Both the position numbers and the translations under genes were made by a program. Source: Solirubrobacterales bacterium (GTDB lineage Bacteria; Actinomycetota; Thermoleophilia; Solirubrobacterales; Solirubrobacteraceae). Taken from it: a stretch of 33,346 bases of DNA. How positions within the stretch are numbered: position 1 is the first letter of the stretch; each line of letters opens with the position of its first letter. The stretch covers positions 1-33,346 of the forward strand of contig PLES01000064.1 in assembly GCA_003137075.1 (NCBI GenBank), written 5' to 3'. Below are positions 10,167 to 15,350 of this stretch, piece after piece. The notes beneath the pieces are model-generated. The model saw only the letters and a list, made by a program, of their open reading frames with translations, was not told the DNA's origin and searched no databases.

Positions 10167-10756
10167 GCCCCAGCACGCTGCGTGACCGTGGCGCTGCTGC
10201 CGTCGACCTCGCCAGTCGAGTGCTTGGCACCCCACAACACCATCAGGCACGGCACCACAAAGTTCAGGATGATGTTCGCGCGTTGAGTGTTGACCGCGCC
10301 CGCGACAATGTGAAACGGAACCATGCCGGCGAAGATCAAGGCCCACATCACCGTGAGCTTGCGGTTGATCGCCTTGAACCGCGCCGACCCCCACGCCTCC
10401 TGAGGCACCGATTCACGCGCGTACTGCTCGGTGAATGGGACGAAGAGCAGCGAAGCGAACGCGAGCAAGGAGAGAGCGGCCGCGGCGATCCCGCGTGCGT
10501 AGCGGGTGACGTCATGGGCGACTGTGGCGTCCGCGGTAAGCGCGACCACGAGAAAGCCGACAAAGGTAACGACGCCGCCGAGGTCCAACATCTTTGGCTT
10601 CCCTGCCCGCAGGCCTGGCAGCGCAATCAGAGCTGCCAGGGCCAGCGACACGATCGACGCCAGCTTCAGATTCGCATGGTTAGCGAGCACTGTAAATACC
10701 ACCCACGGAACCAGTGCTACGAACATCCCGCCCTTACTGCTCTTCTTGTTTGACAT
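10163..10756 (-). CDS. Hypothetical membrane protein, six predicted TM segments
   Basis: A 197-residue integral membrane protein. Hydrophobic segments at about 10-27, 30-49, 56-75, 87-108, 138-158 and 163-180; the basic N-terminus (MSNKKSSKGG) should be cytoplasmic. A 30-residue loop between TM4 and TM5 (EQYARESVPQEAWGSARFKAINRK) carries most charges. Start ATG 10756 has a strong AGGAGG site 6-7 nt upstream. It is the first gene of a probable three-gene unit: membrane protein, coupled soluble protein, LAL regulator. I do not recognise the family; a membrane sensor or a small transporter are both open. Confidence 0.65.
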   Translation of the reverse strand: MSNKKSSKGGMFVALVPWVVFTVLANHANLKLASIVSLALAALIALPGLRAGKPKMLDLGGVVTFVGFLVVALTADATVAHDVTRYARGIAAAALSLLAFASLLFVPFTEQYARESVPQEAWGSARFKAINRKLTVMWALIFAGMVPFHIVAGAVNTQRANIILNFVVPCLMVLWGAKHSTGEVDGSSATVTQRAGA

Positions 10757-10954
10757 CTCTTGCCTCCTAAGCGATTGTGGTTATGCCCTGCCCGACACGC
10801 ATAAGGTCGCAATCGGAGGCACGCATGTCCTGCGTAGCTGACTACGTAACTGCAACCTAGGTAATACGAGCGTGACTCGTGCCCGCCCATAGCTCGGAAC
10901 CAGTTGCGGCGCGGCCGCGGCACAGCAAGCGAGGCAAGCCCTGGTTCACCAGAC

Positions 10955-10980
10955 GGCCTTCGTCCTCTCGGGCGAAGGCC
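10955..10980. repeat. Perfect hairpin, 8-bp stem
   Basis: GGCCTTCG and CGAAGGCC separated by 10 nt. No T-run follows on either strand, so it is not an obvious terminator. Confidence 0.55.
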
Positions 10981-11014
10981 CGATCAGTGAGACCACCGGG
11001 TTGCACGTCGAGAC

Positions 11015-11043
11015 CTCCGTGGGCTGGCGAGCTCGCCACGGAG
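11015..11043. repeat. Perfect hairpin, 8-bp stem
   Basis: CTCCGTGG and CCACGGAG separated by 13 nt that contain a further palindromic core (GGCGAGCTCGCC overlaps the right arm). Second of three inverted repeats in tandem before the insertion sequence. Confidence 0.55.
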
Positions 11044-11067
11044 CAGTCCGAACCGAACTTCGATGGG

Positions 11068-11086
11068 CGAAACTACGCTGAGGCGG
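11068..11086. repeat. Left arm of the hairpin split by the IS110 element
   Basis: CGAAACTACGCT, then GAG and GCGG. With the right arm at 12642-12665 (CCGC, CTC, AGCATAGTTTCG) it rebuilds one imperfect hairpin once the element is taken out: 11 of 12 pairs in the lower stem, then 3 and 4 pairs separated by small bulges, with an 8-nt loop ACGATCGG. The insertion lies in this loop. Confidence 0.65.
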
Positions 11087-11100
11087 ACGATCGCTCATAG

Positions 11101-11300
11101 GACAACCTTGTGGTGCCTCGACCGCCGTCGGGAGAGGGCCACGATCGCTTGCCCTTGTGCAGAGGGCCAACGAAAGACCAGCCCCTCCCAACGGTGGTGA
11201 GGTGCCGCCAGCGGCGACAGGACGTAGCCCCAACTGTGAGGGCCTTGTCTATGAGCACCCGCAACGGTACCTCCGGTCCGAGGCCCTTGTCCAGAGTGGA
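11101..11300 (+). ncRNA. Predicted IS110 bridge RNA (target- and donor-binding loops)
   Basis: IS110 transposases use an RNA from their own non-coding end to pair with target and donor DNA. Here, loop 1 has an outer stem 11130-11138/11182-11189 (GGGAG, bulged A, GGG with CCC, CTCCC), a 5' internal-loop side at 11139-11148 containing ACGATCG, and an inner hairpin 11149-11170. Loop 2 has an outer stem 11238-11247/11279-11288 (10 pairs, two of them G-U type), a 5' side with CTATGAGC (11249-11256) and a 3' side with CCTCCGG (11270-11276). A small GCCG-CCAG-CGGC hairpin (11204-11215) separates them. Loop 1 matches the left flank plus core; loop 2 matches both element ends. Exact RNA ends are not known. 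Confidence 0.7.
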
Positions 11301-11312
11301 ACGGAGGGAGCG

Positions 11313-12614
11313 ATGGGTAACTACGCGGGTGTTGATTGGGCTTCGGAGAAGCACGATGTGCTGATCGCTGACGGTGCTGGCGAGGAGTTGTTCGCCGGGA
11401 CGTTTTGTCACGATGAGGCCGGTATAACGAGTCTCTGCCGGGCGCTGGTCAAGCGTGATGTTGAGGTCGTCGCGATCGAGCGTCCGGACGGTTTGTTGGT
11501 AGAGCGGCTGCTCGATGCCGGGGTGCAAGTGCTTGCTCTGCATCCCAATCAGGTGAAGGCCGCTAGGGATCGGTTCCGGGCGTCGGGCGGCAAGTCAGAC
11601 CGGTTCGACAGCTTCGTTCTCTGCGAGCTCGCGCGCACCGACAGCCACCGTTTCCGGATTCTGGAACCTGACTCAGAAGAGACCAAGGCGATGCGGGCGC
11701 TGACTCGTGCTCGGGAAGACTTGGTCGGCGCGCGGGTCTCACTGGGGCAGCAGTTACGCGCTGAGCTCGACAGGTTCTGGCCTGGGGCGGTCGGACTGTT
11801 CAGCAGCATCGATAGTCAGATCTCGTTGGCGTTCCTGGCGCGCTACCCCAGCCCGGCAGATGCCAAGGGACTCGGGGAGAAACGCCTCGCCGCGTTCCTC
11901 AAGAACCAGGGTTACTCGGCACGCAAAACCCCGTCGCAACTGCTGGAGCATCTGCGTGCAGCGCCAGCCGGACGCGCCGGCCAGGTCGAAACCCGGACGC
12001 GTCGGTCGATCGTGCTGTCGCTCACCAGAACCTTGCAGGTGATGGTCGAGCAGATCCGCGAGCTCGAGTCAGAGATCGCCCAGGCGCTCAGAACCCATCC
12101 GGACGGGAAGCTCTTCCACAGCTTCTTCATCAGCCCTCAGTCGGTGATCTGCGCAGCCACCCTCCTTTCAGAGATTGGTGACTGCCGCGGGCGCTACCCA
12201 CACCGTGACGCGATCGCCGCCCAGGGCGGTCACGCACCCGTGGCCGTTGAGTCCGGCAAGCGCAAGAACGCGAAGTTCCGCTGGGCCTGCAACAAACGCC
12301 TACGTCGCGCTCTTGAGACCGTCGCGATGAGCACCATGAAATGGAACCCTTGGGCCGCTGACCTCTACGCCCAAGCGCGAGCCCGCGGCCACAATCACCG
12401 CCGCGCACTGCGGACTCTCGGACGCGCTTGGAGCCGGATCATCTGGCGCTGCTGGCGGACACGAACGCCCTATGACCCCGCCCAGCACACCGCCCTGAAA
12501 CAGCACATCACCGTCACCATTCCCAGCCCGTCGCGCCCACGCCCCGACTCCAAAACCACCGCACGCATAGCTTCAACTCTGACCTCATCGAAGCTTCAAA
12601 CGGCGGGAGGTTGA
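11313..12614 (+). CDS. IS110-family transposase (RNA-guided DEDD recombinase)
   Basis: 433 aa. The N-terminal RuvC-like DEDD domain (DEDD_Tnp_IS110) shows Asp8 in GVDWA, Glu56 in AIERPDG, and Asp96 and Asp99 in KSDRFDS, the same spacing as the IS621 tetrad. A helical/coiled middle (about 125-260) is followed by the Transposase_20 domain, with SVICAATLLSEIGD and HAPVAVESGKRK; Ser314 is the likely nucleophile. All catalytic positions look intact and the frame is unbroken, so the element may be active. ATG 11313 has GGAGGGAG directly upstream; the frame upstream of it is the bridge-RNA region and not coding. Confidence 0.92.
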   Translation: MGNYAGVDWASEKHDVLIADGAGEELFAGTFCHDEAGITSLCRALVKRDVEVVAIERPDGLLVERLLDAGVQVLALHPNQVKAARDRFRASGGKSDRFDSFVLCELARTDSHRFRILEPDSEETKAMRALTRAREDLVGARVSLGQQLRAELDRFWPGAVGLFSSIDSQISLAFLARYPSPADAKGLGEKRLAAFLKNQGYSARKTPSQLLEHLRAAPAGRAGQVETRTRRSIVLSLTRTLQVMVEQIRELESEIAQALRTHPDGKLFHSFFISPQSVICAATLLSEIGDCRGRYPHRDAIAAQGGHAPVAVESGKRKNAKFRWACNKRLRRALETVAMSTMKWNPWAADLYAQARARGHNHRRALRTLGRAWSRIIWRCWRTRTPYDPAQHTALKQHITVTIPSPSRPRPDSKTTARIASTLTSSKLQTAGG

Positions 12615-12641
12615 CACAGGACGTCTCTCGTCCTCCGGCGG

Positions 12642-12665
12642 CCGCCAACTCGGAGCATAGTTTCG
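12642..12665. repeat. Right arm of the hairpin split by the IS110 element
   Basis: CCGC, CTC and AGCATAGTTTCG, complementary to the left arm at 11068-11086. See that entry for the rebuilt hairpin. Confidence 0.65.
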
Positions 12666-12754
12666 GCGAATCAGGAGTCGTCGGGCCTGACGGAGCGGGG
12701 CGCTGCTTGCCGCCCAGGCAAGGAGCGCTGGGCAGGGCCATTTCGGGAGCGGTT

Positions 12755-12778
12755 TGTTACTCCCTGGTGTTACTCCCT
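12755..12778. repeat. Tandem 11-bp direct repeat TGTTACTCCCT
   Basis: Two exact copies at 12755-12765 and 12768-12778, 2 bp apart, between the IS110 element and the 3' end of tRNA-Arg. Possibly a recombinase arm site left by an integrated element; no integrase gene is in the window. Confidence 0.4.
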
Positions 12779-12813
12779 CGCCAAAACGTCACAACCCCAG
12801 TGGTGCATAAACG

Positions 12814-12841
12814 AAAAAACCCCAGCAATTGCTGAGGTTTT
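12814..12841 (-). terminator. Terminator of tRNA-Arg
   Basis: On the minus strand: AACCTCAGC-AATT-GCTGGGGTT followed by a run of T, 5 nt past the tRNA 3' end. Nine pairs with one G-T. The plus strand reads a weaker T-run (four T), so it could also stop rightward transcription. Confidence 0.85.
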
Positions 12842-12845
12842 CCAG

Positions 12846-12919
<74 letters not shown>

Positions 12920-12959
12920 AAGACGTACGGCGTCGCTGATGGTAGCGCCACAACGATGG

Positions 12960-15350
12960 TCAGACCGGTGCGGTCATGCCGAGCTGGCCGGTTACGCTGA
13001 AATCGAGATCGCCCGCGGGCATAGGCTTGCTGATCAGATAGCCCTGGGCGAGGTCACAGCCGAAGCTGGTGAGCAGCTCAAGCGTGGCGGCGTCCTCGAC
13101 ACCCTCTGCGACGACGCGTAGGCCGAGCGAATGCGCAAGCTCGATGGTCGACTGAACAATCGCCACATCGCGCCCGGCGGAAGCTGTCGCGAGCTCGGTG
13201 ATGAAGCTGCGATCGAGTTTCAGCTCGCCGACGGCGAGGCTGCCCAGGTAGGCAAGCGACGTGAAGCCGGCACCGAAGTCATCGACCGAGACGATCACGC
13301 CGAGATCTCGCATCTCCTCTATCGCTGCCTTCGACCGATCGAGGTCAGAGATCGCAGAGGTCTCGGTGACCTCCAGGACCAGCGCCTCCGGTGGAAGCTG
13401 ATTGTGCTCAAGCGAGCGCTTGACCATCGACGAGAAGTCCGGACCCACGAGGTTCGTCGGGGAGACGTTGACTGAGACGGTCAAGGACTGGCCGTCCGCA
13501 CGCCACGCCGCGCATTGCGCCATTGCATCCTCGAGCACCATCTCCGTCAGCTGATCCATCAAGCCTGATTCCTCGGCCAGCGGAATGAACGCGGGAGGCG
13601 GCACGAAGCCGAGCCGGGGGTGGAGCCAGCGAAGCAGCGCTTCGACCGAGACGATTTCACCGGTCCGCAGATCGGCTTGGGGCTGGTAGTAGAGCTCCAG
13701 CTGGTGCTGCTCGATGGCGACACGCAACTCTTCAGCTAGCACGAGCTTGTCGCCCTCGCCGTCCAGGTCGTCCTGGAAGATCGCGAGGTCGTGCCCGGCG
13801 CTCTTGGCGCGGTACATCGCTAGGTCCGCGCAGCGCACCAGATCGGCCGCATTGGTGGCATCCTGCGGCGCCACGGCGATGCCGATGCTCGCGCCTACGT
13901 GTGCGCGGACGCCATCAATCAAGAAACTCTGCTCAAGCCGCGCGGTCAGCCGCTGGGCGACCATGGCGGCGTAGTCAGCATCGGCGTCGGGCAGCACGAC
14001 CGCAAACTCGTCGCCGCCCAGCCGTACGAACAGGTCGGTGCTTCGCAGCGACCCCTCGAGCCGTGAACCAAGCTGGCGCAGCAGCTCATCGCCGGCTGCG
14101 TGTCCAAACGAGTCGTTAACTTCCTTGAAGTGATTGAGGTCGATGAAGAGGAAGGACAGCTGATCTGGAAGCATGTCGGAGTCGGCCTGCTCGGGCAGCA
14201 ATGCGTCGAGCGTGTGAAACAACGCGCGGCGGTTGAGCAGGCCAGTCAGCTGGTCGGTGACGGCCTGGCGGTGACGCTCTTCCGTGAGCCGACGCAGAGC
14301 TCCGACTGTCAGGCCGGATCGCACGCCGGCGGCGACCAGCGTCGCGACGGCAAGTCCGACGCCGACGACCACCACGTGCTGCAGGGCCCCGACGCAGAGG
14401 ATCGCGAGCGCGGCGAACGCGGCCATGTAGGGCAAGGTGAACCCGGGCGGCCGCTGATCGCTCAGGCTCTTGGTGCCGCGCTTTGGCAGCCAGGTGGCCA
14501 GCGAAACGAGCAGCGTGTAGCTCGGCCATGCGATCGCGTTCGCGAAGCTCCCGATATGGCTTGAGCCGATTGATGACGAGAACAGGTTGAACGTGTCGCC
14601 GACGACGATCATCGCGAAGCCTGCAGCGAGCATCAGCCACGGTGCCGTGGCGCGACCAGGAAGGATCGCGGTGCCGCCTACGACCATCACCAGCAGCAGC
14701 AGGTCGCCGATCGGGTAGGCGAGGTTGGTCGCCACCGAGATGCTGCTGCCGCCGGCATCGTGCAGGACCCCGTGGAATGCGAACGCTGCGCAGACCGCGG
14801 CCGCCCCGAGTCCCGCGATCGCACCGTCGAGCCACGTGCTGACGCTGAAGCTGATCGCCTCACGCCGGAACAGCAACACCAGCGCTCCATAGGTAACCGG
14901 GTAGAAGGCTAGGTAGAAGACGTCGGCGAGTCCAGGAGATGGGGGTGTGCCACCGCCCAGCGACTGAATCGTGAGCACGATGTCGCCGGCCGCCCAAGTC
15001 AGAATGCCGATCCCGAGCAGCAAGGTAACGGAGCGCCGGGTGCGGCTGAAATACGCCCGCGCCAGGCAGAGCACGCCTGCGATCAACTCGCCGGCATCAA
15101 CTCCCCAGCCATCGATCGCCGTGGAATACTGACCGGCGGGGCGTACGAGCACGAAAAGCGCGTAGGCGACCAGCCCGAGCCCGAGCAACCCGTACGCAGC
15201 CCAAAGCGCCGGGGGGACGCGCTCGGTTCCGCCAGTCGGTCGCCGGCGCTCATGAATCAAGCTAGATCCGGATGCATCTCCCGCGTCCGTGCCCTCGTTT
15301 AGCCGCGTCGACTGCATTCCCGACTTATCGGACTGCGTGCGCCTAAGCAT
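12960..15350 (-). CDS. Membrane-bound GGDEF-EAL c-di-GMP enzyme
   Basis: 796 aa. About nine to ten TM helices in residues 48-345, with no recognised periplasmic domain. GGDEF domain at about 358-525: GGDEF at 445-449 and the inhibitory I-site RSTD at 436-439, correctly five residues earlier. EAL domain at about 540-790: EALLRW at 570-575, NVS at 628-630, TET at 662-664, DDFGAG at 690-695, KLD at 711-713, Glu749 in VVAEGVED. Both active sites therefore look intact, so it could make (from two GTP) and break (to pGpG) cyclic di-GMP. Flanked by two tRNA genes with no partner gene. ATG 15350 lacks a clear ribosome site; Met12 is an alternative start. Confidence 0.93.
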   Translation of the reverse strand: MLRRTQSDKSGMQSTRLNEGTDAGDASGSSLIHERRRPTGGTERVPPALWAAYGLLGLGLVAYALFVLVRPAGQYSTAIDGWGVDAGELIAGVLCLARAYFSRTRRSVTLLLGIGILTWAAGDIVLTIQSLGGGTPPSPGLADVFYLAFYPVTYGALVLLFRREAISFSVSTWLDGAIAGLGAAAVCAAFAFHGVLHDAGGSSISVATNLAYPIGDLLLLVMVVGGTAILPGRATAPWLMLAAGFAMIVVGDTFNLFSSSIGSSHIGSFANAIAWPSYTLLVSLATWLPKRGTKSLSDQRPPGFTLPYMAAFAALAILCVGALQHVVVVGVGLAVATLVAAGVRSGLTVGALRRLTEERHRQAVTDQLTGLLNRRALFHTLDALLPEQADSDMLPDQLSFLFIDLNHFKEVNDSFGHAAGDELLRQLGSRLEGSLRSTDLFVRLGGDEFAVVLPDADADYAAMVAQRLTARLEQSFLIDGVRAHVGASIGIAVAPQDATNAADLVRCADLAMYRAKSAGHDLAIFQDDLDGEGDKLVLAEELRVAIEQHQLELYYQPQADLRTGEIVSVEALLRWLHPRLGFVPPPAFIPLAEESGLMDQLTEMVLEDAMAQCAAWRADGQSLTVSVNVSPTNLVGPDFSSMVKRSLEHNQLPPEALVLEVTETSAISDLDRSKAAIEEMRDLGVIVSVDDFGAGFTSLAYLGSLAVGELKLDRSFITELATASAGRDVAIVQSTIELAHSLGLRVVAEGVEDAATLELLTSFGCDLAQGYLISKPMPAGDLDFSVTGQLGMTAPV

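What the first reader, a model, noticed from the sequence alone, without database searches (positions are those of the whole stretch)
11092..12640. IS110 bridge RNA readable from the sequence: donor loop matches both element ends
The 31-nt internal loop of stem 11238-11247/11279-11288 holds CTATGAGC on its 5' side, complementary to GCTCATAG at 11093-11100, and CCTCCGG on its 3' side, identical to 12632-12638 just past the transposase stop. Read on one strand this gives a circle junction CCTCCGG-CG-CTCATAG, exactly what a donor-binding loop must recognise, with a symmetric 7+2+7 layout. The transposase keeps all catalytic residues. Known family biology: IS110 recombinases use such RNAs. New here is a self-consistent guide and ends for this particular element.
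Basis: partly seen in the sequence, partly recalled or inferred. Interest (0 to 1): 0.9.

Follow-up and report, generated by a model that had tools for sequence, protein, structure and literature searches.

The report
IS110 element with canonical bridge RNA
The window holds a complete IS110-type jumping gene whose own guide RNA can be read letter by letter, but its right end, core and guide layout differ from those first proposed and follow the known pattern; several relatives seem to be guided to the joints between neighbouring host genes.

Summary
The element is real: an IS110-group insertion sequence with a bridge RNA (bRNA) in its left end. The rest fails. CCTCCGG (11270-11276) largely belongs to a stem strand, and its copy at 12632-12638 lies outside the element. 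The core is CT, not CG (11094-11095, 12625-12626). The left donor guide is ACAGGACGT (11217-11225), identical to the right end 12616-12624. The target loop is readable too: LTG CACGATCG(CT), RTG ACGAAAG, matching the flanks at 7 of 8 and 6 of 7 positions. Order LTG-RTG-LDG-RDG, as in IS621. All four guides agree with their own DNA better than in any of 20,000 re-pairings each; guides read blind in distant relatives found the right end in 13 of 18 loci. A new member of a known kind. More interesting in the clade: natural cores CC and GT with guides changed to match, and targets at TGA stops or stop/start overlaps of host genes, where the left end supplies a new ATG/GTG. The window copy does not target such a site.

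The parts
11094..12626 (+). whole element, core to core, 1533 bp (one core copy belongs to the target)
   Evidence: Left end: similarity of nine listed matches begins at window 11090-11094 (L016 and L002 begin earlier, at 11082 and 11084) and LE alignment; right end: TTGAC-LD-core word followed by unrelated flanks; length
11094..11095 (+). left core dinucleotide CT
11096..11100 (+). right donor (RD) CATAG; with the core, CTCATAG
   Evidence: pairs with RDG; 27 of 28 perfect
11086..11093 (+). left target (LT) GACGATCG, host flank
   Evidence: 7 of 8 identical to LTG CACGATCG
11103..11108 (+). CAACCT: -10-like hexamer 17 nt after TTGACA in the circle; also a 6-nt inverted match to AGGTTG 12608-12613
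   Evidence: junction printed; inverted match; promoter role inferred
11115..11277 (+). bridge RNA, approximate limits (5' end inferred from the junction promoter)
   Evidence: alignment A1, consensus fold, covariance model hit 11116-11277 (window is in the training set)
11125..11139 (+). target-binding loop outer stem, 5' strand (pairs with 11181-11194)
   Evidence: 13 pairs, 97.5% of cells paired, 5 pairs with double changes
11140..11149 (+). left target guide LTG CACGATCG plus core CT
11152..11166 (+). target-loop inner hairpin (11152-11154 with 11164-11166)
   Evidence: 3 pairs, 97.6% paired, 2 with double changes
11170..11176 (+). right target guide RTG ACGAAAG (against CTCTCGT at 12625-12631, one mismatch); AC at 11177-11178 is a handshake-guide candidate matching LD end GT
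   Evidence: handshake role inferred from PMC11208158
11199..11207 (+). donor-loop outer stem, 5' strand GAGGTGCCG (pairs with 11265-11273 CGGTACCTC)
   Evidence: 9 pairs, 81% paired, 4 with double changes, the weakest helix; not formed in the single-sequence MFE
11211..11214 (+). donor-loop inner stem GCGG (pairs with 11259-11262 CCGC)
   Evidence: 4 pairs, 96.4% paired, 2 with double changes; also in the MFE
11217..11225 (+). left donor guide LDG ACAGGACGT
   Evidence: identical to 12616-12624; 11 of 18 elements perfect, 7 one mismatch
11227..11243 (+). donor-loop hairpin GCCC 11227-11230 / GGGC 11240-11243
   Evidence: same place in relatives as GCCC/GGGC, GCGC/GCGC, GGCGT/ACGCC; in the window, L052 and L003 the longest-stem script picked another 5-bp stem
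11249..11255 (+). right donor guide RDG CTATGAG; CA 11256-11257 follows as handshake-guide candidate
11265..11273 (+).
11313..12614 (+). IS110 recombinase, 433 aa; D8, E56, D96, D99, S314
   Evidence: PF01548 E 4.2e-32 and PF02371 E 7.2e-13; aligned to IS621 8wt6; residues. S241 of IS621 as catalytic is; the DEDD positions of IS621 are recalled
12611..12616 (+). TTGACA, candidate -35 of the circle-junction promoter
   Evidence: present in the right-end word of 18 of 18 tabulated elements; activity not tested
12616..12624 (+). left donor (LD) ACAGGACGT, right end of the element
12625..12626 (+). right core dinucleotide CT
12627..12631 (+). right target (RT) CTCGT, host flank
   Evidence: 6 of 7 with core against RTG
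12632..12638 (+).

Best explanation
A complete IS110-group element (11094-12626). Inferred cycle, by homology to IS621: the recombinase excises the element as a circle whose RE-LE junction (ACAGGACGT-CT-CATAG) restores a promoter (TTGACA, 17 nt, CAACCT) that transcribes the left end into a bridge RNA of about 165 nt. Its first loop (LTG CACGATCG-CT, RTG ACGAAAG) pairs with both strands of a genomic target, its second loop (LDG ACAGGACGT, RDG CTATGAG) with the junction; strands are exchanged at CT. Shown here: gene, ends, RNA structure by covariation, agreement of all four guides with their DNA across relatives. Inferred: transcription, complex formation, activity.
For: Recombinase domains and the five catalytic positions. 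RNA structure: 29 pairs, 92.2% of cells paired, 13 pairs with double changes, 0 of 500 shuffles as high, slid versions 41.4-47.2%. Guides against DNA: RD/RDG 27 of 28 perfect; LD/LDG 11 of 18 perfect and 7 with one mismatch; RT/RTG 8 of 18 perfect, 7 with one, 3 with two mismatches; LT/LTG match 31 of 31 next to the core, falling to 11-12 of 31 at the far end; 0 of 20,000 re-pairings reach the observed value for LT, RD (without core), RT and LD. In the window the expected left and right junction words score 14 of 15 and 15 of 16 and are the best places of 33 kb on both strands (next best 11 and 12; shuffled guides reach at most 12 within 10500-13500). Blind reading in distant relatives: right end found in 13 of 18 loci. 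Core changes CT to CC (L056) and GT (L120) run through LE, RE, LTG, RTG and RDG together. A likely truncated left end elsewhere in the same genome (L002, 36-nt match, E 8.3e-4) has LT CACGATCG, 8 of 8 to the window's LTG.
Against: Guide strings were read by hand, and right ends were located with the LDG allowing 2 mismatches, which favours LD/LDG agreement; the TTGAC prefix and the RT match are independent of that. Far LT positions match poorly. LTG is followed by CC in L038 and CA in L140 although their core is CT. LDG does not pair with the core, unlike IS621. L043, L107 and L108 share an LDG/LD mismatch. Five of 18 blind loci failed (L130, and L129, L133, L134, L136, four copies of one element). 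The covariance model also gave an antisense hit on the window stem (21.1 bits). No empty site was found; no second full copy in the genome. Relatedness inflates shuffle tests.
Confidence: 0.94

Rival explanations
1. One reading: donor loop closed by 11238-11247/11279-11288, guides CTATGAGC and CCTCCGG, core CG, right end 12638.
For: All strings are present and the stem can pair in the window.
Against: Stem and CCTCCGG match are not kept in relatives; relatives end 12 bp earlier; the 3' side is conserved stem; the guide order would be the reverse of IS621.
Confidence: 0.02
2. A correctly read but inactive relic: the copy has the parts but no longer moves.
For: One full copy in the genome; target guides have one mismatch each to the present flanks; many relatives are interrupted or cut.
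Against: Recombinase open over 433 aa with catalytic residues, RNA scores high against the family model (153.5 bits; in the training set), all guides legible.
Confidence: 0.3
3. Guides and ends agree only because both are inherited unchanged, not because they pair.
For: LDG/LD and RDG/RD are strongly conserved; relatives are not independent.
Against: Compensated changes on both sides (GCTGATAGG/CTATCAGC, GCCTATAGG/CTATAGGC, GCTTACTGG/CAGTAAGC; ACACGACGT in L054 on both sides) and agreement of LTG and RTG with flanks that are host DNA, not inherited with the element.
Confidence: 0.02

Closest known systems
IS621 and its bridge RNA (IS110 group; PMC11208160 and PMC11208158, passages seen)
   Same: DEDD recombinase with catalytic Ser, RNA in a long left end, two internal loops, order LTG-RTG-LDG-RDG, CT core at both ends, junction promoter, handshake positions after RTG and RDG
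   Different: Diverged recombinase (phmmer E 4.9e-07); different guides; RTG of 7 nt (IS621: 4); LDG of 9 nt without core pairing; clade members with CC and GT cores. PMC11208158 calls the second core T almost invariant
seekRNA of IS1111 and IS110 types (PMC11187229, passages seen)
   Same: Same phenomenon; noncoding region upstream of tnp in the IS110 type
   Different: IS1111 members usually carry the RNA downstream and have the opposite order of target guides; this element does not
IS900 (IS110 family; PMC8141618, passages seen)
   Same: Target motif CATGNNNNNNTCTCCTT looks like a translation start, as targets of relatives here do (reading of the motif is mine; Doran 1997 seen only as a title in the reference list)
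   Different: Relatives here hit TGA stops and stop/start overlaps; the window copy targets neither

Membership tests
IS110 family, IS110 group | DEDD RuvC-like domain plus Transposase_20 domain with catalytic Ser | tested here: met
   PF01548 and PF02371 above cut-off; D8, E56, D96, D99, S314 aligned to IS621
IS110 family, IS110 group | long noncoding left end upstream of the recombinase that holds the RNA | tested here: met
   217 nt between left core and start codon; RNA 11115-11277 by covariation
IS110 family, IS110 group | bRNA with target loop and donor loop whose guides pair with target and RE-LE junction | tested here: met
   complementarity and covariation only:
IS110 family, IS110 group | left guide before right guide in each loop (IS621 order) | tested here: met
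   LTG 11140, RTG 11170, LDG 11217, RDG 11249; order of IS621
IS110 family, IS110 group | CT core at both ends | tested here: met
   11094-11095 and 12625-12626
IS110 family, IS110 group | circular intermediate with junction promoter, RNA expressed and bound by the recombinase | not testable with these tools
   only the sequence of the predicted junction
IS1111 group | sub-terminal inverted repeats of 7-17 bp (range from PMC11208160) | tested here: inconclusive
   in the outermost 66-67 nt, longest exact inverted matches: 7 nt CCGCCGT 11122/12600 (inside RNA stem and gene, 28 and 20 nt from the ends) and 6 nt CAACCT 11103/AGGTTG 12608; no terminal pair among the 25 of 33 inverted repeats listed
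IS1111 group | RNA in the right end | tested here: not met
   only 10 nt between the stop codon and the right core

The most novel reading that the evidence does not exclude
In the wider actinobacterial clade, bridge RNAs are programmed to the joint between two co-directional host genes (TGAG; often the overlapping ATGA/GTGA), and the element's left end carries an outward Shine-Dalgarno-like AGG and an ATGAG/GTGAG that replaces the start codon it splits off, while the core copy on the right keeps the upstream TGA. Insertion thus leaves both host proteins intact: a guide and an end sequence matched to minimise harm. A second part: the core dinucleotide evolves by concerted change of both ends and the core-facing guides (CT, CC, GT).
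Probability: 0.4. Interest if true: 0.7.

Novelty: new member of a known kind. Interest (0 to 1): 0.4.

Why it matters
It shows that a complete bRNA guide set and exact element ends can be read from raw sequence when relatives are used, and how a single-sequence reading can be led astray by a chance 7-mer. It gives a diverged actinobacterial set of bridge recombinases with matched guides, natural core variants that bear on the reported near-invariance of the core T, and a testable idea of why some IS110 elements target gene joints.

Tried and rejected
Single-sequence folding: stable, contains the inner donor stem, but pairs the outer donor strand upstream and LDG partly with RDG; replaced by the alignment. 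Rfam gathering scan of the window: only three tRNAs, no bridge-RNA family. Swapped-order donor loop: considered while only RDG was known, dropped once LDG was found at 11217. Predicted target CGATCGCTNTCGT elsewhere in the genome: 0 exact matches. Empty site in the genus by right-flank search: apart from the window itself the listed hits lie almost all in the tRNA part, so no empty site was seen. L046 and L044 as further CC-core elements: no usable RNA; L046's right end reads ACAGGACGT-CT. Structure prediction and fold search: not run.

Rows left out of the guide table: L002, L016, L017, L041, L044, L046, L050, L055, L078, L118 (no RNA, no clear end, or degenerate). L015, L045 and L114 are only in the LT rows, L106 only in the RT and LD rows; 11 of the 28 RNAs have no right end found. 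Loci with gene pieces only (L051, L109, L110, L112, L113) were fetched but not read for guides, nor were the distant recombinases L068-L086, apart from L068-L070 in the model search (no hit).

Full report
Check of the observation. The recombinase is a 433-aa ORF, 11313-12614, with DEDD_Tnp_IS110 (E 4.2e-32) and Transposase_20 (E 7.2e-13) domains and the IS621 catalytic set D, E, D, D, S at residues 8, 56, 96, 99, 314 (that the DEDD positions of IS621 are catalytic is recalled, S241 is). The element is present once in full in its genome; a 36-nt match at G000:C150 looks like a truncated left end.

Relatives. DNA search of 101 genomes gave matches in 23, the window's own included; nine listed matches begin at query 41-45, window 11090-11094, others inside, and L016 and L002 begin a few bases earlier. 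Protein searches covered 146 family genomes (45 with a match at 1e-3, many of them distant), 232 of the order (17 at E 1e-40), 399 of the class (15 at 1e-60) and 396 of the phylum (13 at 1e-60), overlapping sets that include the window's genome. One scan of genome contigs gave five loci, titled Solirubrobacteraceae or Solirubrobacterales MAGs.

Order problem and its solution. In IS621 the donor loop reads LDG then RDG (PMC11208158, passages). With CTATGAG as RDG, the LDG must lie upstream. ACAGGACGT at 11217-11225 is identical to 12616-12624, just past the stop codon, and is followed there by CT. Relatives whose right end is held end in TTGAC, an LDG-like word, then the core, then unrelated DNA. 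The target loop then reads: LTG CACGATCG-CT (11140-11149) against GACGATCG-CT at the left flank, RTG ACGAAAG (11170-11176) against CTCTCGT at the right.

Tests. Hand-read guide and DNA strings, checked for presence in each locus: RD/RDG 27 of 28 perfect; LD/LDG 11 of 18 perfect, 7 with one mismatch; RT/RTG 8 of 18 perfect, 7 with one, 3 with two; LT/LTG matches from the core outward 31, 25, 23, 20, 22, 17, 11, 12 of 31. The sums for LT, RD without core, RT without core and LD were reached in 0 of 20,000 re-pairings; the RD core alone in 45 of 20,000. The 18 are those with a right end found: 17 of the 28 RNAs plus L106; the other 11 RNAs (L035, L036, L037, L038, L039, L040, L042, L047, L048, L111, L141) have none, mostly for cut contigs or genes. 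Right ends were located by LDG similarity, which favours LD/LDG; the flank tests (LT, RT) do not have that bias. LTG is followed by CC in L038 and CA in L140 against a CT core. Within the window the expected junction words are the best places of both strands (14 of 15 at 11086, 15 of 16 at 12616).

Structure. Alignment A1 of 28 RNAs, RNAalifold (20 pairs, 9 with double changes) and my 29-pair structure (92.2% paired, 13 pairs with double changes, 0 of 500 shuffles as high, slid versions 41.4-47.2%) give a target loop (stem 11125-11139/11181-11194, hairpin 11152-11166) and a donor loop (stems 11199-11207/11265-11273 and 11211-11214/11259-11262, hairpin 11227-11243). The outermost donor stem is the weakest (81% paired; one pair formed in 11 of 28), was added by me and is absent from the RNAalifold consensus and from the window's MFE.

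Independent check. A covariance model from A1 found RNAs in 18 of 19 loci L118-L136 (all but L118), which were not in the training set; of the other 12 sources given, the window scored 153.5 bits, plus an antisense hit of 21.1 bits, L046 16.7 bits, and the remaining ten gave nothing. Guides read from those 18 RNAs before looking downstream predicted the right end plus flank: in 13 of 18 loci the top place has an RT match of 7 of 7 (12 loci) or 6 of 7 (L132), and 12 of the 13 carry the TTGAC prefix (L120 has TTGCA; at L119 two places tie and one has the prefix). Failures: L130 and L129, L133, L134, L136, the last four copies of one element.

Core variants. L056 has CC at both ends with LTG ...GCC, RTG ...GG, RDG ...GG; L036 shows the same on its left end and RNA; L120 has GT throughout. 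PMC11208158 describes the second core T as almost invariant and read by a main-chain contact (passage), so CC is unusual. LDG does not reach the core here, so three of the four guides carry the change.

Handshake positions. By eye: the nucleotides after RTG, AC in most of A1, fit the LD end GT; those after RDG fit the target at the position next to the core in most (C opposite G); AG opposite CT in L128; GT opposite AC in L129 and L133; L122 and L126 do not fit. This agrees with PMC11208158 and adds little.

Targets of relatives. Of 31 sites examined, 23 read TGAG at the target on the other strand. Of 21 with at least 300 nt of right flank, 15 have 100 or more open codons ending at that TGA and 6 do not. 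Control: TGAG words in the same flanks, 69 of 262 (which included the sites themselves) or 54 of 241 without them; one-sided Fisher 8e-06. Open frames are common in GC-rich DNA and some of the 15, such as L126, look non-coding. Of 18 RTGAG sites with enough left flank, 11 have 100 or more codons from the start. At five of the seven sites long on both sides, chosen by me, Pfam named the upstream gene in 4 of 5 and the downstream gene in 5 of 5; at L124 ATP-grasp_2/Ligase_CoA then CoA_binding/Ligase_CoA, presumably succinyl-CoA ligase beta and alpha. Read outward, the left end has AGG, 7-8 nt, then ATGAG or GTGAG in 15 of these 18 (not L121, L127, L131), so the downstream frame keeps a start and the upstream frame its stop. 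The AGG may instead be kept as the -10 of the junction promoter or as part of the short inverted match CAACCT/AGGTTG; function is unproven. Against generality: the window and its nearest relatives (L052, L056, L003, L040, L038, L037) have other RTGs. IS900 has a start-codon-like target motif (PMC8141618, passages). My searches of open papers (4 of 4, 15 of 50, 15 of 19 and 15 of 242 hits listed, titles and abstract starts only; with 'IS900' terms found none) showed no paper on stop/start-joint targeting by bridge RNAs; subscription papers are not covered, so this is no proof of absence.

Verdict. An ordinary, well-legible member of the IS110 group.

Noticed in passing
L124, L121, L139, L049, L140 and others (sites): Related elements sit at TGA stop or ATGA/GTGA stop-start overlaps of co-directional host genes, e.g. 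apparently between succinyl-CoA ligase subunit genes, and their left end supplies a new start codon.
   Followed up: partly
L056, L036, L120: Natural non-CT cores (CC, GT) with the ends and core-facing guides changed together.
   Followed up: partly
L002 (G000:C150:927-962): Likely truncated left end of the same lineage in the window's genome, its left flank CACGATCG identical to the window's LTG.
   Followed up: yes
window 11086-12640 with the element taken out: The insertion site reads GGACGA-TCGCTC-TCGTCC, a small inverted repeat, so the target may be a hairpin.
   Followed up: no
window 12743-12782: A 40-nt stretch just right of the element recurs at 93% in G000:C153:6601-6640, perhaps another small repeat or mobile remnant.
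   Followed up: no
L043, L107, L108: A subclade with a shared LDG/LD mismatch (ACAGGAGGT against ACAGGGGGT) and RTGs ending TTAG or CTAG.
   Followed up: no
L129, L133, L134, L136: Four copies of one element in one genome with a recognisable RNA but no right end found by the LDG/RTG rule; two (L134, L136) have GT instead of CT at the left core.
   Followed up: no
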